NCBI GenBank assembly: GCA_001586195.1
Contig: CP014609.1
Coordinates: 1,028,001-1,092,000 of the forward strand
From: Solibacillus silvestris
GTDB lineage: Bacteria; Bacillota; Bacilli; Bacillales_A; Planococcaceae
Reading direction: 5' to 3'
DNA: 64,000 bases
Shown here piece after piece: positions 13,981-63,255 of the stretch. The position numbers and the translations under genes were made by a program. The notes beneath the pieces are model-generated. The model did no database searches, was not told the DNA's origin, and was given only the letters and a program-made list of their open reading frames with translations. Within the stretch, counting starts at the first letter, position 1. Every line of letters begins with the position of its first letter.

Positions 13981-15123
13981 ATGTCTGAGGAAATGAATTT
14001 AGGGTCAAACCAAAAATTTCAAGAAGGAGATATTGTGAAAGGTGTTGCTGAACAGGTTGAAGAGAAGTCAGTAACGGTTTCGGTCGAGGGGGCACCATTC
14101 GACGGGATTATACCTATTAGCGAACTTTCAAGCTTACACATTGAAAAAGCTTCTGATATAGTTTCAGTTGGCGATCAGCTAGAGCTTATGATTACGAAAG
14201 TTGAAGAAGAGAATTTTGTATTATCGAAACGCAAAGTAGATGCACTACATGCGTGGGATGATTTAAAAGCGAAATTCGAATCTGGTGAAGTATTCGAAGC
14301 AGAAGTGAAAGATGTAGTGAAAGGCGGACTTGTCGTCGATTTAGGCGTACGCGGTTTCGTTCCGGCTTCACTCGTTGAAGATTATTTTGTCGAAGATTTT
14401 GAGGATTACAAAGGCAAAACATTACGTTTAAAAATTACAGAGTTAGATAAAGAAAAAGGCAGACTCATTTTATCTCATCGTGCAGTACTGGATGAAGAAA
14501 AAGCGTCGAAAAAGCAACAAGTGATTCAAAACATCCATCAGGGTGATATGCTTGAAGGTACAGTTCAGCGCTTGGCAAAATTCGGTGCGTTCATTGATTT
14601 GGGTGGCATTGATGGATTAGTCCATATTTCACAAGTAGCGCATGAACATGTTGAAGATATTTCGACGGTATTACAGGAAGGACAATCCGTAACTGTAAAA
14701 GTGCTTTCAGTGGATATTCCGAATGAACGTGTTTCATTATCGATCAAAGATACGTTGCCTGGTCCTTGGACAGACATTGAAGAGAAGGCTTCAAAAGGCG
14801 CAATTTTAACAGGTACTGTAAAACGTCTTGTTACATTCGGCGCGTTTGTAGAAGTATTCCCTGGAGTAGAAGGACTTGTCCATATTTCTCAAATTTCCCA
14901 CAAGCATATTACGACACCACATGAAGTTTTAAAAGACGGTCAAGAGGTGGAAGTAAAAGTACTTGAGGTAAATGAGGCGGAAAAACGACTTGCACTGAGC
15001 ATTAAAGCATTGCAGGAAGATTCAGCGAGTGACGAGGATTTCGATTATGAACTGCCGGAAGAAAATAAAGGCTTCTCATTCAGCGATGTCATCGGTGATC
15101 AGCTAAAAGGATTTAAAAAATAA
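13981..15123 (+). CDS. ypfD: 30S ribosomal protein S1 homologue YpfD
   Basis: An RNA-binding protein of 380 residues made of four S1 (OB-fold) repeats at about 15-82, 100-165, 186-255 and 270-340. The third and fourth contain the typical FGAFIDLGGIDGLVHIS and FGAFVEVFPGVEGLVHIS signatures. It is shorter than E. coli S1 (six repeats). The B. subtilis homologue is non-essential and loosely tied to ribosomes. An acidic tail ends in GDQLKGFKK. A strong Shine-Dalgarno (AAGGAGGG) precedes the ATG, and a strong terminator follows. Confidence 0.94.
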   Translation: MSEEMNLGSNQKFQEGDIVKGVAEQVEEKSVTVSVEGAPFDGIIPISELSSLHIEKASDIVSVGDQLELMITKVEEENFVLSKRKVDALHAWDDLKAKFESGEVFEAEVKDVVKGGLVVDLGVRGFVPASLVEDYFVEDFEDYKGKTLRLKITELDKEKGRLILSHRAVLDEEKASKKQQVIQNIHQGDMLEGTVQRLAKFGAFIDLGGIDGLVHISQVAHEHVEDISTVLQEGQSVTVKVLSVDIPNERVSLSIKDTLPGPWTDIEEKASKGAILTGTVKRLVTFGAFVEVFPGVEGLVHISQISHKHITTPHEVLKDGQEVEVKVLEVNEAEKRLALSIKALQEDSASDEDFDYELPEENKGFSFSDVIGDQLKGFKK

Positions 15124-15127
15124 TAAG

Positions 15128-15172
15128 ATCAAAACCGCCCATGTAAGGATTCCTTATATGTGCGGTTTTTTG
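15128..15172 (+). terminator. ypfD terminator
   Basis: A long stem with CCGC/GCGG ends and an inner TAAGGA/TCCTTA helix, followed by TTTTTT. Confidence 0.9.
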
Positions 15173-15192: not shown

Positions 15193-15388
15193 AGCTGTGT
15201 GGCGAATTTTATTAGAAAGATTTATTAGTTTATAGGAAAAAGAAAATGATATTTTAGAAGAACTGCAGGCATTATTTGAACAAGTGGCATTCATTTTAGA
15301 ACTTTCGGGAAATATATTAGAAAGCTGGCTATTTATTCGAACAAATAAAAATATATTAGATAATTTTTGAGTATTTTAGAAAATCATG
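15193..15388. repeat. Phased ATTAGAA array, copy A
   Basis: Part of the 382-base gap before der. Nine TTAGAA-like motifs (TTAGAA, TATAGG, TTTGAA, TTCGAA and similar) have their G at 15215, 15235, 15257, 15278, 15299, 15320, 15339, 15359 and 15379. Spacings are 20, 22, 21, 21, 21, 19, 20 and 20. The segment is homologous to 52380-52573. A translated stretch FIRTNKNILDNF resembles the frame of copy B, but an in-frame TAG at the left and the lack of a start codon argue against a gene. Confidence 0.8.
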
Positions 15389-15505: not shown

Positions 15506-16816
15506 ATGACAAAACCAGTAATCGCCATCGTAGGACGTCCGAACGTAGGTAAATCGACAATTTTTAACAGAATTGTTGGAGAACGTGTATCGATCGTGGA
15601 AGATATCCCAGGTGTAACACGTGACCGTATTTATAGTTCGGCTGATTGGCTAGCACATGAATTTAATATTATCGACACTGGTGGTATTGAAATTGGAGAC
15701 GAGCCGTTTTTAGAGCAAATTCGCCAACAAGCGGAAATTGCGATTGATGAGGCGGACGTTATTATTTTCATGACTAATGGACGTGAAGGTGTTACGGCTG
15801 CAGATGAGCAAGTAGCAAAAATTTTATATAAAACAAAAAAACCGGTTGTCTTGGCAATTAATAAAATCGACAACCCGGATATGCGTCATATGATTTATGA
15901 CTTCTATTCATTAGGTTTCGGTGAGCCTTGGCCAATTTCAGGTTCGCACGGATTAGGCTTAGGGGATTTATTGGATGAATGTGCGAAACATTTCCCGCAG
16001 CCGGATGAAGAGCAATATGATGATGATACGATTAAATTCTCTTTAATCGGGCGTCCGAATGTTGGGAAATCTTCACTTGTGAATGCCTTTTTAGGTCAGG
16101 ACCGCGTTATTGTAAGTGAAATTCAAGGGACAACTCGTGATGCAATCGACTCTCCGTACTCATATGATGGACAAGATTATGTCATTATTGATACAGCGGG
16201 TATGCGTAAAAAAGGGAAAGTCTATGAATCAACAGAAAAGTATTCGGTATTACGTGCACTGCGCGCAATCGAGCGTTCAGACGTTGTTTTAGTTGTTCTG
16301 AATGCAGATGAAGGCATTCAGGAACAGGATAAAAAAATCGCTGGCTATGCACATGAAGCTGGTAAAGCAGTCATTATTGTTGTAAACAAATGGGATGCGA
16401 TTGAAAAAGACGAGAAAACGATGAATATCTTTACAGAACAAATTCGTGAGCATTTCCTGTTTTTAGATTATGCACCAATCGTGTTTGTATCTGCTAAAAC
16501 AAAACAGCGTGTACACAATATTTTACCGATTATTAAGCGTGTTAGTGAAAACCACGCAATGCGTATTCAATCATCAATTTTAAATGAAGTAATTGAAGAT
16601 TCGATCGCACGTAATCCTGCACCAACAGATAAAGGGCGTCGTTTACGTATTTACTACGCAACACAAGTGGCGATTAAACCACCGACATTCGTTGTATTCG
16701 TAAATGAACCGGAAATGATGCACTTCTCATACGAGCGCTTTTTAGAAAACCGTATCCGAGAGACTTTCGACTTTGAAGGAACTCCGATACGTTTAATTAC
16801 ACGTGCTCGTGACTAA
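15506..16816 (+). CDS. der: GTPase Der (EngA)
   Basis: An essential double GTPase needed for 50S ribosome subunit maturation. The 436 residues hold two G domains, each with GRPNVGKS(T/S) P-loops (about 9-17 and 180-188), DTGG/DTAG switch motifs and NKID/NKWD specificity motifs, plus a C-terminal KH-like domain (about 350-436). Length equals B. subtilis Der. It is preceded by its own promoter after the phased repeat and followed by a terminator. Confidence 0.98.
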
Positions 16817-45727: not shown

Positions 45728-46040
45728 AAGCTAAGTAGAAATGTTTTTTACATTAATTATTTATTCTGTACGTTTTCTTCCAAACTTGTTATAGTAGCTT
45801 TAGGACAGTATCTTAATAGAACTGTACCTGCAACTGCTAGTCAACATTTAAAAAATCTGCTTTGATCTACACAAGACAGAGACGGAAGAAAACGCGCATA
45901 AATGAATTCATTTTATACTTGTCGTTGGATTATTTCCATTTTAAGTATGGAATGTATTGAATTTACGTATGGTACTACCCTTCTGTCTAATTTTAGATAG
46001 AAGGGTATTTTTGTTTTCTTTCCACTTAAGGAGGAAGAAC
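45728..46040 (+). other. 313-base birA-panB gap: likely panB leader
   Basis: No gene is visible. An extended -10 promoter (TGTTATAGT, 45787-45795, with weak TGTACG upstream) could start a leader of about 240 bases. This leader contains the 14-bp palindrome AAATGAATTCATTT (45900-45913) and a strong terminator hairpin (45976-46013) just 28 bases before panB. This layout fits either transcription attenuation of panBCD or simple termination of birA readthrough. Confidence 0.45.
45976..46013 (+). terminator. Strong terminator just before panB
   Basis: TACCCTTCT pairs with AGAAGGGTA, and the helix continues to 14 bp with one G-U pair and a 4-base loop, then TTTTTG. Confidence 0.88.
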
Positions 46041-50982: not shown

Positions 50983-52131
50983 ATGTTTATTTTTCAAATA
51001 GTTATCGTACTATTGGCAACAAAAATAGCAGGGCATTTTACAGTGCGTCTAGGGCAACCTTCAGTACTGGGGAAAATCCTGATCGGTATTATTATCGGTC
51101 CTGCTATGCTTGGCTGGATTACTGACAGTGAAGTGATGCAAACATTCAGTCAAATAGGGGTTATTCTATTAATGTTTTTAGCCGGTTTAGAAACTGATCT
51201 GGAAGATTTAAATGCAAATATGAAAGGCGCAATTTTCGTCGCAATTGGCGGTGTCATTTTACCGATTGCGATGAGTTATCCGTTGGCAATGGCATTTGGC
51301 CTTACGCAAGGGCAGGCAATTTTCATCGGACTAACATTAGCTGCTACATCAGTTAGTATTTCAGTTCAAACATTAAGCGAAATCGGTTGGCTGAAGAGTA
51401 AAGAAGGGTCTACATTATTAGGTGCTGCCGTACTGGATGATATTATCGTCGTAGTATTAATCGCAATTGCAATGAGTTTCCTTGTAGGGGATGATGTTTC
51501 AATTCCAGTATTAATCGGCGGAAAAGTATTCTTCTTTGTTTTATTATTTGTTGTAATGAGATGGGTTATTCCACCGTTCCTAAAAGCGTTCAGCCGTCTG
51601 AAAGTTACGGAGGCACTGTTAAGCGGAGCGCTTATTGCATGTTTTGCGTTAGCATACATAGGTGAGCATTACTTTGGTATCGCTACAATTATCGGAGCAT
51701 TCTTTATCGGTATTGCGATCGGACGCACTCCATTTAAAGAGACAGTCGAGCATAAAGTTGAACCAATTGCGAGCGGAATTTTTGTGCCGTTCTTCTTCGT
51801 TAGTATCGGATTATCTGTTACATTTGATGGGATTACAGAAAATATTTGGTTTTTGGTGATCTTCTCAATCGTTGCAATTTTATCTAAGCTGATCGGATCT
51901 GGTATTGGTGCGAAATTGGCAGGCTTTAGCTGGAAATCTTCTGCAGGTATCGGTGCAGGGATGATTTCTCGTGGTGAAGTTGCATTGATTCTTGCGGGTA
52001 TGGGTTTATCAAGTGGTTTACTGCCGGCGGAAGACTATACGCCAATGGTAATCGTAATTATTATTACAACATTAGTTACACCACCAATGTTAAAAGGAAT
52101 TTTCGGAAATCGTTCAAATTTAATGGATTAA
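50983..52131 (+). CDS. Cation:proton antiporter (CPA2 family)
   Basis: A polytopic membrane protein of 382 residues with about 12 transmembrane helices (KefB/NapA-like). The family signatures around GQPSVLGKILIGIIIGP, FLAGLETDLEDL, and the conserved TM helix with LGAAVLDDIIVVVLIA (paired aspartates of the antiport site) are present. No RCK/TrkA-N domain follows, so it is the short, non-regulated type. AAAGGGGG precedes the ATG. It may exchange Na+ or K+ for protons; the ion is not deducible from the sequence. Confidence 0.87.
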   Translation: MFIFQIVIVLLATKIAGHFTVRLGQPSVLGKILIGIIIGPAMLGWITDSEVMQTFSQIGVILLMFLAGLETDLEDLNANMKGAIFVAIGGVILPIAMSYPLAMAFGLTQGQAIFIGLTLAATSVSISVQTLSEIGWLKSKEGSTLLGAAVLDDIIVVVLIAIAMSFLVGDDVSIPVLIGGKVFFFVLLFVVMRWVIPPFLKAFSRLKVTEALLSGALIACFALAYIGEHYFGIATIIGAFFIGIAIGRTPFKETVEHKVEPIASGIFVPFFFVSIGLSVTFDGITENIWFLVIFSIVAILSKLIGSGIGAKLAGFSWKSSAGIGAGMISRGEVALILAGMGLSSGLLPAEDYTPMVIVIIITTLVTPPMLKGIFGNRSNLMD

Positions 52132-52165: not shown

Positions 52166-52172
52166 ATGTTTT

Positions 52173-52337
52173 AGGTGCCAAAACCTCTGTGAAGATTTAG
52201 TCTTCACAACAAAAGCCTCCACCAACAGCACGGATTTGCTGGGAAGCTTTTGAATTGTGCAGGGAGATGAGCCCCTGCACACCTATACATAGTATATTAA
52301 CCTAGTGTTGTCCTTGAGGCGGCACTAGGTTTTTTTT
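52173..52337 (+). ncRNA. Structured non-coding RNA, about 165 nt, family not identified
   Basis: It lies between a good promoter and a strong terminator and has no ORF with a ribosome site. Pairings that I can see are as follows. P1 closes the molecule: GGTGCC (52174-52179) with GGCACT (52321-52326) and CCTC (52184-52187) with GAGG (52316-52319). P2 is a perfect 8-bp hairpin (52188-52208). P3 is AAAAGC/GCTTTT (52211-52251) with an inner CAGCA/TGCTG. P4 is 9 bp (TGTGCAGGG with CCCTGCACA, 52256-52281). P5 is TATAC/GTATA (52284-52296). The 3' half of P1 is also used by the terminator, so the two folds exclude each other. It could be a 6S-like RNA or a riboswitch-type regulator, but I cannot assign it. 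Confidence 0.6.
52300..52337 (+). terminator. Terminator of the structured RNA
   Basis: ACCTAGTG (52300-52307) pairs with CACTAGGT (52323-52330), followed by eight T residues. Its right arm competes with the RNA's closing stem P1. Confidence 0.9.
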
Positions 52338-52379
52338 GCCTAAAAAATATGAAAAGTAATACGTTAATGGCAAAAGTGA

Positions 52380-52573
52380 AGCTGCGTGTAATTTTTATTA
52401 GAACAATTGAGCTTATAATAGAATACTTGAGATGGATATTAGATGAACTTGAGATGATATTAGAACAATTTGGATGTTTATTTGAACAGTTGGCGGTTAT
52501 ATTAGAAAACTGTAATTTTATTAGAACAAATAAGGATTTATTAGATGATTTTAAAATATATTAGAACATTTAG
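52380..52573. repeat. Phased ATTAGAA array, copy B
   Basis: Nine TTAGAA-like motifs have their G at 52401, 52421, 52442, 52463, 52484, 52505, 52524, 52544 and 52564. Spacings are 20, 21, 21, 21, 21, 19, 20 and 20, nearly identical to copy A at 15193-15388. A 71-residue frame (52349-52564) crosses it but has no ribosome site. The stretch up to dinG (52574-52717) shows no other feature. Confidence 0.8.
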
Positions 52574-52717: not shown

Positions 52718-55498
52718 ATGAAGGAAAGTCAAAAGTATGCGATTGTCGACATAGAAACTACAGGACATTCTCCTGCAAGCGGCGACCGTATGATACAAAT
52801 CGCGATCGTTATTATGCAAGGATGGGAAATCGTAAAAAAATATTCTACATTTATCAATCCGGGAAAACCGATCCCGTTATTTATACAGGATTTAACTAAT
52901 ATTACAGACGAAGATGTAAAAGATGCTTTACCATTTGAGGCGTATGCGGATTATATTTACGAGCTGCTGGAAGGGGCAGTATTTGTTGCCCATAATACCG
53001 ATTTTGACTTGAACTTTTTACAGGCAGAATTTAACCGTGCAGGCCTATCGAAATGGCACGGCAAGAAAATTGACACAGTCGAACTAACAAAAATTTTGTT
53101 TCCGATGTCGTTAAGCTACAAATTATCGGATTTAGCGAACGATTTTAATATCCTGCTGCAAAGTGCACACCGAGCGGATGATGATGCACTCGCAACAGCT
53201 TACCTGCTTAAACATTGTTGGGAAGAGCTGTTAACATTGCCGCTCGTTACTTTGGAACAATTGCATAAACGTTCTTTCCGTTTGAGAACAGATTTGGCCC
53301 AGCTGTTTTTTGACGCGCTTGTCATCAAACGCAACAAAGCAATAACGGATGAAGGGCATGTCTTTTACCGTAAAATCGCAATTCGCAAAATGGCACCAAC
53401 GCCAAAGTGCGATGGGGATAAACTTGTTTATCCGCAGACGACTGATGAAAAAATGACTTTATTATTAAATGGAATTCCCGATTTTGAAGAGCGCCCGCAG
53501 CAGTTTCAAATGATGGACAGCATTTGGCATGCACTCAACACAAATGCGGAGCACGTTATCGAAGCATCAACGGGCATCGGAAAAACGATGGGCTATTTAG
53601 TGCCATCGATTTATTATGCTAAGAAAACAAATCGGAAAATAGGAATTAGTACGTATACTTCTCATTTGCTTGATCAGCTTATGCAAAACGATATTCCGAT
53701 ATTGGAACAGGCACTTGGCCAGCCGATTAAAATGGCTTTATTAAAAGGGATGAATCACTATATCGACGTTGAAAAGTTCGAGAAAGAGCTAAAAACCCAG
53801 GATGAATCCTATGATCAGACTTTTACAGTACTGCAAACACTGATCTGGCTGGCGAAAACGGAGACTGGTGATTTAAGTGAGCTGAATGTGTCAGGCGGCG
53901 GTCAGCTGCTCCTTGATAAAATCCGAAAGAGCGCATTGCCGAAAACGACAATGCCGCTCTATGATTTTTACTCACGGGCAATTCAAAATAGTCATCAGGC
54001 AGACATTATTGTGACAAATCATGCAATGCTGCTAAGTGATCTGGTTCGCAATGATCAGATTTTTAATTCATTAGGCGGATGGATAATTGATGAAGCGCAT
54101 CAGTTTATTCAAGCTGCAATCAATCAGCATGAAAAAATCTTTACTTATATGAATTGGAAATATTTATTTGGACAAATTGGTATACAGGAAGATGAACAGC
54201 TGTTTTATAAAATTCGTCGGGTTGCAATTAAGAAACAGCTGCTGAATTATCAAACACTGGATCAGCTGGAAAAGCGCTATATTCAAATGGTCAATGCGTT
54301 TGATACAGCAATGGCGGCATTGCTTCGAGAAGTGAAGGTTGCAAATCACCAGTCTAAACAACAGAAAATTGAAGTCTTTATTTCTGAATTGCAGTTGGGG
54401 CGTGAAGTTTTAATAAAAGTTTCGCTCACGGTGCAGCAATGGGTGGATGAGGCGACCGAGCTTATACGGAAGTTCACTTCTAGTGTGGAGGAGCTTGCAC
54501 CAGAGCATGAATATTTAATTGAGCAATGGCAGTATATCGTCAATGAGTTTACGATTAAAATTGCAGAATGGGATGATGTATTTTTAAACCAGGATCCCGA
54601 CTATTCATGCTGGCTGGAATTGGACCAGCGCAGTGTTCCGGGAAGTATCCAGCTTTATAAAAAACCGATCGAAGTGACATCGACGATTGGGAAACTTTTT
54701 GATCCAATCCGTGAAAAAAGCGGCATTGTCTGGACATCCGGAACGTTAACAGTGCCAAGTAATGAGCGTTTTATTACGAACCAGCTGGGAATCGATCCGT
54801 CGATTCCAATTGAAAAGCTCCATGCTGACCCGAGTTATTATGACGGGGCGGAAGTGTATATTGTCAATGACATGCCGGACATTCAGGCCGTTTCACAATC
54901 CGAATATATTGAAGAGGTCGCGCATGCGGTCACAAATACAGTGCGAATGACGAATGGTAGATGTTTTGTTTTATTCACATCTCAGGACATGCTGCGTAAA
55001 ACGGTCAACCTAATACAGGAAAGTGAATTGTTAAGCGACTATATGATTTTTGCACAAGGTGTCACATCCGGAAGCCGTATGCGCTTATTAAAGTCTTTCC
55101 AAAAGTTTAATCATTCCGTATTATTTGGAACGAACAGTTTTTGGGAAGGGGTCGATGTGCCGGGTGACGGTTTGTCTGCAGTTATTGTCGTGCGGCTGCC
55201 GTTTTCTTCTCCGGAAGAGCCTGCATTTAAAGCGCGGGCCAATTATTTAACACAGCAAGGACGCAATTCCTTTACAGAGCTTTCGCTGCCTGATGCTATT
55301 ATCCGGTTCAAACAAGGGTTCGGCCGGTTAATTCGTTCCAGCCATGATAAAGGGGTGTTTATCGTTTTGGATCGCCGGATTGAAACAAAATCATACGGAC
55401 AGCAGTTTATCGAGTCATTACCGCCAATTTCTATACAAAAACTGCCTCTACACAGTATGGTACAAAGCTTAGGAAATTGGTATAATGAAAAACGATGA
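52718..55498 (+). CDS. dinG: DinG-type exonuclease/helicase
   Basis: A 926-residue fusion typical of Firmicutes. The N-terminal DEDD 3'-5' exonuclease domain (about 5-170) shows DIETTG, AHNTDFDLNFL and AHRADDDA. The rest is an XPD/DinG-type helicase: Walker A in ASTGIGKTM, DEAH in WIIDEAHQ, and motif VI around QGFGRLIR. The four iron-sulfur cysteines of E. coli DinG are not evident; S. aureus-type DinG is likewise a nuclease rather than a helicase. The ribosome binding site is weak. The order panD-dinG-ypmB-aspB matches B. subtilis apart from the inserted genes. Confidence 0.95.
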   Translation: MKESQKYAIVDIETTGHSPASGDRMIQIAIVIMQGWEIVKKYSTFINPGKPIPLFIQDLTNITDEDVKDALPFEAYADYIYELLEGAVFVAHNTDFDLNFLQAEFNRAGLSKWHGKKIDTVELTKILFPMSLSYKLSDLANDFNILLQSAHRADDDALATAYLLKHCWEELLTLPLVTLEQLHKRSFRLRTDLAQLFFDALVIKRNKAITDEGHVFYRKIAIRKMAPTPKCDGDKLVYPQTTDEKMTLLLNGIPDFEERPQQFQMMDSIWHALNTNAEHVIEASTGIGKTMGYLVPSIYYAKKTNRKIGISTYTSHLLDQLMQNDIPILEQALGQPIKMALLKGMNHYIDVEKFEKELKTQDESYDQTFTVLQTLIWLAKTETGDLSELNVSGGGQLLLDKIRKSALPKTTMPLYDFYSRAIQNSHQADIIVTNHAMLLSDLVRNDQIFNSLGGWIIDEAHQFIQAAINQHEKIFTYMNWKYLFGQIGIQEDEQLFYKIRRVAIKKQLLNYQTLDQLEKRYIQMVNAFDTAMAALLREVKVANHQSKQQKIEVFISELQLGREVLIKVSLTVQQWVDEATELIRKFTSSVEELAPEHEYLIEQWQYIVNEFTIKIAEWDDVFLNQDPDYSCWLELDQRSVPGSIQLYKKPIEVTSTIGKLFDPIREKSGIVWTSGTLTVPSNERFITNQLGIDPSIPIEKLHADPSYYDGAEVYIVNDMPDIQAVSQSEYIEEVAHAVTNTVRMTNGRCFVLFTSQDMLRKTVNLIQESELLSDYMIFAQGVTSGSRMRLLKSFQKFNHSVLFGTNSFWEGVDVPGDGLSAVIVVRLPFSSPEEPAFKARANYLTQQGRNSFTELSLPDAIIRFKQGFGRLIRSSHDKGVFIVLDRRIETKSYGQQFIESLPPISIQKLPLHSMVQSLGNWYNEKR

Positions 55499-60546: not shown

Positions 60547-63255
60547 TTAATCGTCTTCTGAGTCTTCAGGTCTTGTTTCGCCGCCTGAAGCGGGTGGGCT
60601 AGGCTGGTTCGGTGCTGGTGGTTCAGGATTGGATTCATCTGGCTCTACCGTATTATCGTTGCCATTTCCATTGCCGTTATTTCCGTTACCGTTCCCATTA
60701 TTTCCATTACCGTTCCCATTATTTCCATTACCGTTCCCGTTGTTTCCGTTGCCATTTCCATTATTCCCATTGTTGTTCCCATTACCCGGCTGTTCAGGTT
60801 GTTCAGCTTCGTTCGGATCTTCAATGGAGTCATTTGGATCTTCAGGTTCTGTTATCTGGTCACCTTCCACGAATAATGCAACGCTTGCCGGATCACTTCG
60901 TAAATCACCTGAAATCGCAGTAACTGTAAATGTATATTCTTTACCGCGTTCGATGTTCGGTACTTGAATTGCGGTTGCGCTTGTCGTAGAAATGACCGTT
61001 GCCGGACCGCCATCAACTTTCATCGATACTTCAAATGTAACGGGATCCGTTTCTTCGCCGGAACCGTCAAGTGAAGAATGTGACCATGTTACATCTGCCA
61101 GTTGTGCTGCATCATTGTATGACGCTTGTAAACTAGTAGGTGAATCTAAAGTTTGAGGGACAAATTCCTCTGTATATTCAGTTGGCTCTGTTCCTTTAAC
61201 GAACAGCTCTGTTGCCTTTTGTGTAGCAGGTGTATATTCATTTGCCAGTTTTAAAGGATTCGATCCGATTACAATCGAAGCTGATACAACGCTGCTTGGC
61301 TGTTTAAATGATGATGACGGGTTATGCTGATTTAAATCCGTCATGATCGATTTGAACAATGTTTGTGGCAACCAGCGCTCTTCCCATGTTGTAATGGCAT
61401 CTTTACGCTGTGAATAACCGCCCCAAATAGCGATCGAGTAGTTTGTTGTATACCCGGCAAACCATGTATCTGGTACTGAGCCATTCTTTAAATTGAACTT
61501 TTCAAATTCATCTGAGCCATAGTTTGTTGTACCTGTTTTACCTGCGATATCAACGCCTGATACCATCGCACGTGTTGCAGAGGCATTGCGTTTGTTACTA
61601 ACTACATCACGTAAAATATCCGTTACCATATAAGCAGTATAATCACTCATCGCTTTTTTGGTTTTCGGTTTAAACGATTTTGAAGTTTTTCCATCACGGA
61701 AAACAATTTTAGTAATGGCGTGCGGACTATTATAAGTACCGTTGTTGCCGAATGCTGCATATGAAGCAGCCATTTGGACAGGAGAAATATTGACGCGTCC
61801 TCCACCTAAAGCTTCAGATTCTGTTAATCCGCTTGATTCAATACCTAAGTTGCCTAAAAACTCTTTGGCGCGGTCCGGACCAACTTCACGGAAAGTTTTC
61901 ACCGCCGGAATATTTCGTGATGTATAGAGCGCTTCACGCACTGTCATCGTCCCTAAATAGCGGCCATCCCAGTTTCCGATAACCTGATCTGAACCAGAAT
62001 ACGTAATTTTTTCATCGACCGTAGTTTGACCAGTCGACCATTTTAAATATTCAATGGCAGGACCATAATCAATTAAAGGTTTTAAAGTCGAACCAGGCTG
62101 GCGGGTTGTCATATCGTAGGCAAAGTTATAGTTAAATTCACCTGTGTAATTGCGTCCGCCGCCAATTGCACGAATTTCACCTGTTGGTGTATCGATGACT
62201 GCAACACCGGCCTGAATCTCTTCAGTAGGGAAGTTGCTGTCATTGTTCATCAAATCTTCTACAATCGTCTGTGCTTTTGGGTCTAGCGTTGTATAAACTT
62301 TGATCCCTTCGGAAGTCAGTTCGCTATCACCGTTTTTTTCAAGTTCTGCTAAAACGACATCCAAAAAGGCAGGATATTTCGTTGTACTATTTGCTACACG
62401 CTCTTCTTCAGGAATGAGCCCACCTGTAATAGGTTCCTTTTTCGCTTTTTCCGCTTCAGCTTCAGTAATTTTACCGTGCTGAACCATTAAGCCTAAAACG
62501 ATATTACGACGTTTTTTTGCACGGTCCGGCTTTTTATATGGATTATAATTGTTCGGACTTTGAGGCATCCCTGCTAATTGAGCATATTCAGCCAATGATA
62601 GTTCACTTAATTCTTTTCCGTAAAATTCTTTTGCTGCTGTACCAAAGCCATGGATTCTACCTGACATTAGGATTTTATTAAAGTACATTTCGAAAATTTC
62701 TTCTTTACTATATTGACGTTCCAGCTTAATTGCGAGCCAAGCTTCCTGCGCTTTACGCTCCAACTTTTTCTCATTGGTAAAGAACGAGTTTTTTACAACT
62801 TGCTGTGTAATTGTACTCGCACCTTGAGCACCAAATCCATCACGGAAGTTGGCAAGTACGGCACCGCCAAGACGCCACAAGTCAACACCGAAGTGATCGA
62901 AAAATCGTGCATCTTCTGTTGCGATAATCGCGTCAATCATTTGCTGTGGTATATCTTCATATTTTACATAATTTCGTTTTTCTGCACCAATTGTTGCAAA
63001 AAGTTCTCCATTTATATCATAAAACTCCGACGAGATCGGATCCTTTAATGCATCTTCATCCAGTTCAGGTGCTTTGCTGACATAGTAGCCAAATAATGCA
63101 GCACCACTTAGGAAACCAATTACCCCAATTAAAACGATTGCTAAAACAATGCGCTTAATCCATTTTCCTGCAGAAGTTTTCGGTTTTCTGGATTTTTTGT
63201 TTTTTTGTTGACGTTCGCGCTTAATTTGTTCGCGTGTTTTTCTATTTTCCGTCAC
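60547..63255 (-). CDS. ponA: Penicillin-binding protein 1A/1B (class A)
   Basis: A bifunctional peptidoglycan glycosyltransferase and transpeptidase. Start chosen at GTG 63255 (GAGGAG seven bases upstream), overlapping recU by 14 bases; 902 residues. A basic N-terminus and transmembrane helix (about 37-60) lead to the GT51 domain (EDARFFDHFGVD, QGASTITQQVVKN), then the transpeptidase with SxxK in RQPGSTLKPL, SxN in TSRNIPAVK and KTGTTN. After these come a fibronectin type III domain (about 715-800) and a Gly/Asn tail, (NNGNGNG)n, encoded by a 21-bp tandem repeat. Transcribed with recU, as in B. subtilis. Confidence 0.96.
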   Translation of the reverse strand: MTENRKTREQIKRERQQKNKKSRKPKTSAGKWIKRIVLAIVLIGVIGFLSGAALFGYYVSKAPELDEDALKDPISSEFYDINGELFATIGAEKRNYVKYEDIPQQMIDAIIATEDARFFDHFGVDLWRLGGAVLANFRDGFGAQGASTITQQVVKNSFFTNEKKLERKAQEAWLAIKLERQYSKEEIFEMYFNKILMSGRIHGFGTAAKEFYGKELSELSLAEYAQLAGMPQSPNNYNPYKKPDRAKKRRNIVLGLMVQHGKITEAEAEKAKKEPITGGLIPEEERVANSTTKYPAFLDVVLAELEKNGDSELTSEGIKVYTTLDPKAQTIVEDLMNNDSNFPTEEIQAGVAVIDTPTGEIRAIGGGRNYTGEFNYNFAYDMTTRQPGSTLKPLIDYGPAIEYLKWSTGQTTVDEKITYSGSDQVIGNWDGRYLGTMTVREALYTSRNIPAVKTFREVGPDRAKEFLGNLGIESSGLTESEALGGGRVNISPVQMAASYAAFGNNGTYNSPHAITKIVFRDGKTSKSFKPKTKKAMSDYTAYMVTDILRDVVSNKRNASATRAMVSGVDIAGKTGTTNYGSDEFEKFNLKNGSVPDTWFAGYTTNYSIAIWGGYSQRKDAITTWEERWLPQTLFKSIMTDLNQHNPSSSFKQPSSVVSASIVIGSNPLKLANEYTPATQKATELFVKGTEPTEYTEEFVPQTLDSPTSLQASYNDAAQLADVTWSHSSLDGSGEETDPVTFEVSMKVDGGPATVISTTSATAIQVPNIERGKEYTFTVTAISGDLRSDPASVALFVEGDQITEPEDPNDSIEDPNEAEQPEQPGNGNNNGNNGNGNGNNGNGNGNNGNGNGNNGNGNGNNGNGNGNDNTVEPDESNPEPPAPNQPSPPASGGETRPEDSEDD
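60656..60790 (-). repeat. 21-bp tandem repeat in ponA (GN-rich tail)
   Basis: Seven-residue NNGNGNG units are repeated about five times, encoded by 21-bp direct repeats with some silent variation. Such repeats vary in copy number by slippage. Confidence 0.8.

What the first reader, a model, noticed from the sequence alone, without database searches (positions are those of the whole stretch)
52380..52573. Helically phased nine-motif array shared by two distant intergenic regions
The G of each TTAGAA-like motif falls at 52401, 52421, 52442, 52463, 52484, 52505, 52524, 52544, 52564. The other copy, 37 kb away (15193-15388), has nine motifs with spacings 20, 22, 21, 21, 21, 19, 20, 20, against 20, 21, 21, 21, 21, 19, 20, 20 here. 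Conservation of the spacing, including the 19-base step, while much of the sequence between motifs differs is what a phased DNA-bending or protein-docking array would give. Both copies lie just after an intrinsic terminator and before a plus-strand gene. A nucleoid protein, origin-distal organiser or transcription buffer are possible roles.
Basis: partly seen in the sequence, partly recalled or inferred. Interest (0 to 1): 0.8.

Follow-up and report, generated by a model that had tools for sequence, protein, structure and literature searches.

The report
Helically phased motif arrays beside terminators
This bacterium carries about fifty copies of a roughly 180-base stretch in which nine near-identical short DNA words sit two helix turns apart next to gene ends; relatives carry arrays with a similar rhythm but different words, which suggests a protein-docking device on the chromosome whose purpose is not yet known.

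Summary
The window lies in a Solibacillus genome (3.99 Mb). It holds 52 strong copies of the nine-motif array, not two. Step 6 is 19 bp in 51 of 52, steps 2 and 3 are 21 bp in 52 of 52, and the span is 164.1 +/- 0.8 bp. Between copies the motifs are 92% identical and the linkers 38% (26% by chance). At the window's locus, six orthologues keep motifs at 91% against 71% for linkers (p = 4e-16). No conserved RNA pairing, no coding signal and no intrinsic curvature under a recalled model were found. 47 of 52 lie within 90 bp of a terminator-like site (no null). Other lineages carry arrays with different core words at about two helical turns. At the 15.2-kb site, three sister genomes have a different-core array in the same place. 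Best reading: DNA-level docking arrays for a sequence-specific, oligomerising protein bound on one helix face, probably a boundary at gene ends. The protein is unidentified; the function is inferred. Ten full-text searches of open papers listed no description.

The parts
52393..52572 (+). Nine-motif phased array (terminal module), motif TATTAGAA(C/A)A; motif starts 52396, 52416, 52437, 52458, 52479, 52500, 52519, 52539, 52559; steps 20,21,21,21,21,19,20,20
   Evidence: same site in seven other Solibacillus genomes
15207..15387 (+). Second copy of the nine-motif array; motif starts 15210, 15231, 15252, 15273, 15294, 15315, 15334, 15354, 15374 (second motif degenerate)
   Evidence: the same interval holds a different-core array in three sister genomes
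52300..52337 (+). Intrinsic terminator 56 bp before the array (end of the preceding transcript)
   Evidence: sequence read directly; hairpin plus T-run found by script
15131..15172 (+). Intrinsic terminator of the S1-domain gene, upstream of the second copy
   Evidence: sequence read directly
50983..52131 (+). Upstream gene, sodium/hydrogen exchanger (PF00999)
52718..55498 (+). Downstream gene, exonuclease-helicase of DinG type (PF00929 + PF13307; the name dinG is recalled)
13981..15123 (+). Gene upstream of the second copy, four S1 domains (PF00575)
15506..16816 (+). Gene downstream of the second copy, EngA/Der-type GTPase (PF01926, PF14714)

Best explanation
A dispersed family of non-coding, double-stranded-DNA docking arrays. 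Each terminal module presents nine head-to-tail copies of an 8-10 bp word (here TATTAGAA(C/A)A) on about the same face of the helix, two turns apart; 19-20 bp steps keep the whole array near 10.25 bp per turn. Shown: copy number, fixed architecture, constraint on words over linkers, proximity to terminator-like sites, other core words with a similar rhythm in other lineages, and a different-core array at one orthologous site. Inferred: a sequence-specific protein binds the words cooperatively and forms a filament or wrapped complex, as ParR does on parC. Beside a terminator such a complex would act as a boundary that keeps residual read-through, converging RNA polymerase or transcription-driven supercoiling from crossing between neighbouring genes. 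Lineages use different words because protein and words co-evolve or because families replace one another. I put the DNA-level docking part at about 0.65 and the boundary role at about 0.3; the confidence given covers docking with a boundary or chromosome-organising role.
For: 52 strong copies with a near-invariant step order, 13 of them not used to build the model. Motif identity 0.917 vs linker 0.378 between paralogues, random 0.261. Orthologous motifs 394/432 vs linkers 423/595, p = 4e-16. Arrays occur in either orientation to neighbouring genes (20 with both, 12 against both) and to replication (26 of 52), which fits a DNA rather than an RNA function. No conserved RNA pairs in 39 sequences. 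Convergent intervals enriched, 16 of 51 vs 9 of 86 (p = 0.003); terminator-like site within 90 bp in 47 of 52. Other words with comparable steps: G009 (21 x5, 19, 21), G003 (21,21,21,20,21,19,21), G128 and Ureibacillus four-word modules with a 40-bp gap. Fitted repeats 10.20-10.35 bp/turn for own and five other modular arrays. Different-core array in the same interval in G004, G006, G008.
Against: No binding protein was found or tested. Proximity to terminators has no null here, and gene ends may simply be the most tolerant places. Plain tandem arrays in other genomes (L070, L072, L073, L077, L079 and genus g14) run at 21 bp without the short correcting steps. Compensation between steps is not significant (p = 0.08). 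Arrays are absent at the dinG site in eight of 16 Solibacillus genomes, so any role there is dispensable. Neighbouring genes show no functional theme in the 19 looked at.
Confidence: 0.5

Rival explanations
1. Non-autonomous mobile repeats (REP- or MITE-like) that settle after terminators; the words are kept because mobilisation needs them and the host gains nothing.
For: Lineage-specific expansion, presence/absence at orthologous sites and a different family at one site; tandem copies in relatives; 31 foreign arrays share almost no gene ends with the own arrays.
Against: No terminal inverted repeats seen at the two window copies. Words stay constrained within orthologous copies that have not moved. 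No match in plasmids or phages. No mobilising enzyme was identified.
Confidence: 0.2
2. DNA-uptake or DNA-recognition signals with lineage dialects, kept by biased uptake and recombination, like the DUS of Neisseriaceae.
For: Lineage-specific core words sharing a few positions; intergenic, near terminators. DUS dialects show both features (passages of PMC3630211).
Against: In the window TATTAGAA is not enriched outside the arrays (4 outside, 3.7 expected in all), whereas DUS are single words in thousands of copies. Helical phasing is not needed for uptake. No Gram-positive uptake sequence is known to me (recalled).
Confidence: 0.08
3. Preferred binding or wrapping sites of DNA gyrase or another topoisomerase that relax transcription-driven supercoils at gene ends.
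For: E. coli gyrase sites carry a ~130-bp motif with periodic G/C content and are enriched downstream of highly transcribed operons, and BIME-2 elements are gyrase sites (passages of PMC6379681). The arrays are 164-180 bp and lie at gene ends.
Against: The gyrase motif is degenerate with 10.75-bp periodicity; here an exact word recurs every ~20.5 bp and the word differs between lineages.
Confidence: 0.1
4. A decayed or real gene for a heptad-repeat protein (21 bp = seven codons).
For: 21 bp is seven codons; the 43-copy array in L077 may be a translated repeat; a true coding 21-bp repeat exists in the window at 60662-60784.
Against: The conserved 19- and 20-bp steps break frame; only 13 of 52 arrays have any open frame against 10.1 +/- 2.4 with shuffled linkers.
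Confidence: 0.03
5. An RNA element (riboswitch, sRNA, terminator extension).
For: It lies next to terminators and promoters.
Against: RNAalifold on 39 copies predicts 0 pairs; no Rfam family matches it; arrays occur in both orientations to neighbouring genes.
Confidence: 0.03

Closest known systems
ParR-parC plasmid centromeres (e.g. pSK41, pCW3)
   Same: Series of direct repeats (20 bp in pSK41, 17 bp in pCW3; parC of pCW3 192 bp), DNA wrapped around ParR, recognition specific to each family (passages of PMC9426499).
   Different: parC is one plasmid site upstream of parM; here ~52 chromosomal sites next to unrelated genes, with no parM/parR seen among the neighbours examined.
DNA uptake sequence dialects of Neisseriaceae
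   Same: Lineage-specific variants of a short word with a few shared positions; found in intergenic regions and at terminators (passages of PMC3630211).
   Different: DUS are single words in thousands of copies, often as inverted pairs; here head-to-tail arrays with fixed helical phase.
BldC-type head-to-tail oligomers on direct repeats
   Same: Asymmetric head-to-tail oligomerisation on direct repeats with sites of varying length (abstract of PMC5859096).
   Different: BldC controls a developmental regulon; no BldC-like candidate was tested here.
REP/BIME elements and gyrase sites
   Same: Dispersed extragenic repeats; BIME-2 bind gyrase, and gyrase sites are enriched downstream of transcribed units (passages of PMC6379681).
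   Different: REP are palindromes; these arrays have no conserved pairing and a strict multi-word phase.

Membership tests
REP/BIME | Palindromic, hairpin-forming repeat unit | tested here: not met
   0 conserved pairs in 39 copies; only short inverted repeats within the two window regions
parC centromere | Series of direct repeats for a DNA-binding adaptor | tested here: met
   nine head-to-tail words with fixed steps; binding itself not tested
parC centromere | Next to parM/parR genes on a plasmid | tested here: not met
   chromosomal; 19 genes beside or near arrays are unrelated; no match in 72,556 plasmid records
DUS dialect | Short word over-represented genome-wide as single copies | tested here: not met
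   window only: 4 TATTAGAA outside the arrays, 3.7 expected in all
DUS dialect | Promotes DNA uptake | not testable with these tools
   needs transformation assays
MITE | Terminal inverted repeats and target-site duplication | tested here: inconclusive
   no terminal inverted repeats at two copies; filled and empty sites compared by eye only, duplication not resolved
CRISPR array | Repeats of about 23-50 bp separated by longer unique spacers (recalled) | tested here: not met
   8-10 bp word, 9-13 bp linker
Rfam RNA element | Match to a covariance model | tested here: not met
   no match over either array at gathering thresholds; none over 52393-52572 at E <= 1
Intrinsically curved phased DNA | Curvature above shuffled sequence | tested here: not met
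   0.915 vs 0.912 over 52 arrays (wedge parameters recalled)
Gyrase site | Gyrase cleavage or binding | not testable with these tools
   needs Topo-Seq

The most novel reading that the evidence does not exclude
A chromosome-wide docking code: helically phased arrays with fixed geometry (four- and nine-word modules, about 10.3 bp per turn) whose recognition word changes as a set between lineages, and even at one orthologous site, because a fast-evolving family of oligomerising DNA-binding proteins co-evolves with them to build boundary complexes at gene ends.
Probability: 0.25. Interest if true: 0.9.

Novelty: categorically new. Interest (0 to 1): 0.76.

Why it matters
If the docking reading holds, a group of Bacillales carries dozens of chromosomal sites, built rather like plasmid centromeres but lying at gene ends, for which I found no description. 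Because the rhythm is kept while the word changes, they form a natural series for asking how a DNA-binding protein and hundreds of sites change specificity together, and a direct test of whether bacteria use fixed protein-DNA boundaries next to terminators. Short open frames that happen to run through arrays (such as 52349-52564) should not be annotated as genes.

Tried and rejected
Coding heptad repeat: rejected for this family (13 of 52 arrays with any open frame vs 10.1 +/- 2.4 null). RNA element: rejected (0 pairs in 39 sequences; both orientations to genes; no Rfam match). Intrinsic curvature: no signal. Replication polarity: none. Terminus depletion: p = 0.02 in the own genome and 0.13, 0.02, 0.14 in three relatives that share arrays with it and whose listing was cut (150 positions entered of 175 matches); not claimed. 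Step compensation: p = 0.08 on 49 arrays; not claimed. Shared loci between genomes: of 31 foreign arrays, one lies directly beside the orthologue of an own array-bearing gene end (G128/L011), near my own rough expectation for chance. Theme among neighbouring genes: none in 20 proteins, 19 of them beside or near arrays. Binding protein: not found; whole proteomes were not held, so no phyletic screen was possible. Literature: ten searches; I saw capped listings with abstract starts (for example 20 of 79, 10 of 401), none about such arrays. The library holds open-licence papers only.

Limits. The family search (41 of 200 genomes at E <= 1e-4) includes weak matches to other-core arrays and what looks like a coding repeat (L076), so it is not a census. 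The chain detector looked at 51 stretches of 20 kb from 18 genomes (1.02 Mb), not a random sample: six of the 18 (G128, G156, G132, G158, G137, G009), and G002, already had matches. Chains of four or more words outside an open frame of 100 codons or more: 11 at 19-22 bp, against 1, 0, 0, 1, 0, 0, 0 for seven other lag sets. One of the 11 (G038) is an 11-bp tandem repeat; the other ten come from 3 genomes (G128, G003, G009). Without the frame filter: 16 against 3, 1, 0, 1, 1, 1, 0. Fifteen of the 18 genomes showed no phased array in the stretches seen (G038's are 11- and 22-bp tandem repeats). Dropped before counts: L027 (score 33, no array), L210-L213 (scores 55-61, degenerate), L214 (fetched for a weak match, not scored), and matches under 54 bits, some of them upstream modules. 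The aligner penalised departures from the expected spacing; the first scan did not. One search also lists lone matches in unrelated taxa, which I take for chance or coding repeats.

Full report
WHAT IS THERE. Copy 1 spans 52393-52572 and copy 2 spans 15207-15387. The window is G000:C1:1028001-1092000 of a 3,991,226-bp genome. Same-genus handles have contigs whose lengths equal named records of Solibacillus: G005 (713,714 and 443,811 bp, S. faecavium), G007 (129,679 bp, S. merdavium), G015 (1,422,349 bp, S. palustris). The genus is therefore Solibacillus as used by that taxonomy.

THE FAMILY. A sequence-only model built from 39 copies finds 52 places at 54 bits or more in the genome. Thirteen of these were not in the training set and show the same steps. 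Over all 52: step 1 is 21 bp in 35 and 20 in 17; steps 2 and 3 are 21 in 52 of 52; step 4 is 21 in 51; step 5 is 21 in 49; step 6 is 19 in 51; step 7 is 20 in 44; step 8 is 20 in 26 and 21 in 23. The span is 164.1 +/- 0.8 bp. The aligner penalised other spacings, but a first scan allowing steps of 18-23 bp gave the same order. Of 49 arrays scoring 85 or more, 24 have at least two further motifs 30-260 bp upstream; in 14 of them a strict test places a four-word-type module (21, 21) 143-146 bp before the terminal module. The pair pattern TATTAGAA-N{2,32}-TATTAGAA occurs 246 times against 1 for the reversed pattern; in the part of the list shown nearly all pairs are 19-21 bp apart or skip one degenerate motif. 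Three array-rich relatives hold 58, 55 and 62 matches at E <= 1e-14.

CONSTRAINT. Between paralogues, motif identity is 0.917, linker identity (bases 10-15 after each motif start) 0.378, random expectation 0.261. At the window's locus the array is at the same place in the seven other array-rich Solibacillus genomes. In the six aligned, motif identity is 394/432 and linker identity 423/595 (p = 4e-16), with no gaps in motifs. Thus the words are kept while the rest drifts. There is no conserved RNA pairing, no coding signal and no intrinsic curvature above shuffles under a recalled wedge model.

PLACE. Of 51 arrays with both neighbours called, 20 lie between genes co-oriented with the array, 12 between genes that both oppose it, 16 between convergent and 3 between divergent genes. 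In own-genome stretches, some of them fetched because they hold arrays, intervals of 60 bp or more are 67 co-directional, 9 convergent and 10 divergent, so convergent intervals are over-represented (16 of 51 vs 9 of 86, p = 0.003). A terminator-like site lies within 90 bp on at least one side in 47 of 52; I made no null for that. Orientation does not follow replication (26 of 52; dnaA at 3,708,241).

GAIN, LOSS AND CORE SWAP. At the dinG site all 16 Solibacillus genomes could be compared. Eight carry the array. Eight do not: in G002, G010, G011 and G013 the dinG-side sequence follows the terminator's T-run within a few bases, in G003 and G014 after some tens of bases, and G009 and G015 have other, longer sequence there. 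At the S1/der site 15 of 16 genomes matched the query. G000, G001 and G012 carry the TATTAGAA array. G004, G006 and G008 carry in the same interval an array of ATTTAGTCAA words at 21 bp. G005 and G007 could not be aligned at the downstream anchor and gave no chain, and seven others show none. The TTTAGTCA family exists elsewhere: 5 of 16 genomes match, the own genome 5 times, the reversed control 0 in all 16.

OTHER LINEAGES. Other genomes show other words with a similar rhythm. G009: TTAATAGACAA, 21 x5, 19, 21. G003: AACTAGCCA with 21,21,21,20,21,19,21, and TGGATAGAA directly after terminators. G128: TTGTAGTAAA / TTGTCGTAAA in four-word modules with a 40-bp gap. Ureibacillus: TTATTAGAAAA in four-word modules with mostly the same 40-bp gap (L142 differs). 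Genus g14: TTATCGGAAYA at 21 bp. The search for TTATNNGAACA triplets at 21 bp finds 24 of 261 genomes in 3 of 19 genera; its reversed control matches in 4 of 261 (9 matches). Fitted helical repeats are 10.25 bp/turn for the own arrays (mean coherence 0.895; 99th percentile of a random-step null 0.820), 10.20-10.35 for five other modular arrays and 10.35 for the own two-module form; a plain tandem array (L077) fits 10.50. Plain 21-bp arrays in other genomes (L070, L072, L073, L079, g14) lack the correcting short steps, so long-range phase near 10.3 is a property of the modular families only.

MECHANISM. Shown: a fixed multi-word geometry at DNA level under constraint, in variable orientation, with family turnover at orthologous sites. 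Inferred: a sequence-specific protein that binds cooperatively on one face and wraps or stiffens the DNA, and a boundary role at gene ends. ParR-parC is the nearest mechanical analogue (passages of PMC9426499). DUS dialects are the nearest evolutionary analogue (passages of PMC3630211). Gyrase-binding elements at gene ends are a live alternative (passages of PMC6379681). For REP/BIME, parC, DUS and CRISPR a defining feature was tested and not met, so I file the arrays under none of them. 'Categorically new' rests on those tests and on ten searches of an open-licence library; a description in a subscription journal could have been missed.

Noticed in passing
window 52170-52330: A ~160-nt non-coding segment ending in a terminator, just upstream of the array, is conserved in 16 of 16 Solibacillus genomes (85-100% identity over the matched part) and has no Rfam match above threshold (best 18.2 bits, cut-off 50): possibly an undescribed small RNA.
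   Followed up: partly
window 60662-60784: A 21-bp tandem repeat (5.9 copies) inside a penicillin-binding-protein gene on the minus strand: an ordinary coding repeat, unlike the arrays.
   Followed up: partly
window 45802-45889: Match to the Rfam pan motif (64.3 bits).
   Followed up: no
L230 (G015), downstream of the dinG-site terminator: A different, non-phased insert of about 190 bp occupies the place where array-rich relatives carry the array.
   Followed up: no
L353:1470-1600 (own genome about 2,593,700): A second phased family in the own genome, core TTTAGTCA (minus strand) at 21 bp, close to a terminator-like hairpin.
   Followed up: partly
L077 (G067): 43 copies at exactly 21 bp of a TTATCCGAACAA word; one frame would read as a leucine-type heptad repeat, so it could be a translated repeat or a young array.
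   Followed up: no
G004 and G006 genomes: 16 DnaA-domain (PF00308) matches each against 2 in the own genome; probably transposon ATPases in several copies (recalled family relation).
   Followed up: no
L264:4566-4991: A gene next to one array matches the rifampin ADP-ribosyltransferase family (PF12120).
   Followed up: no
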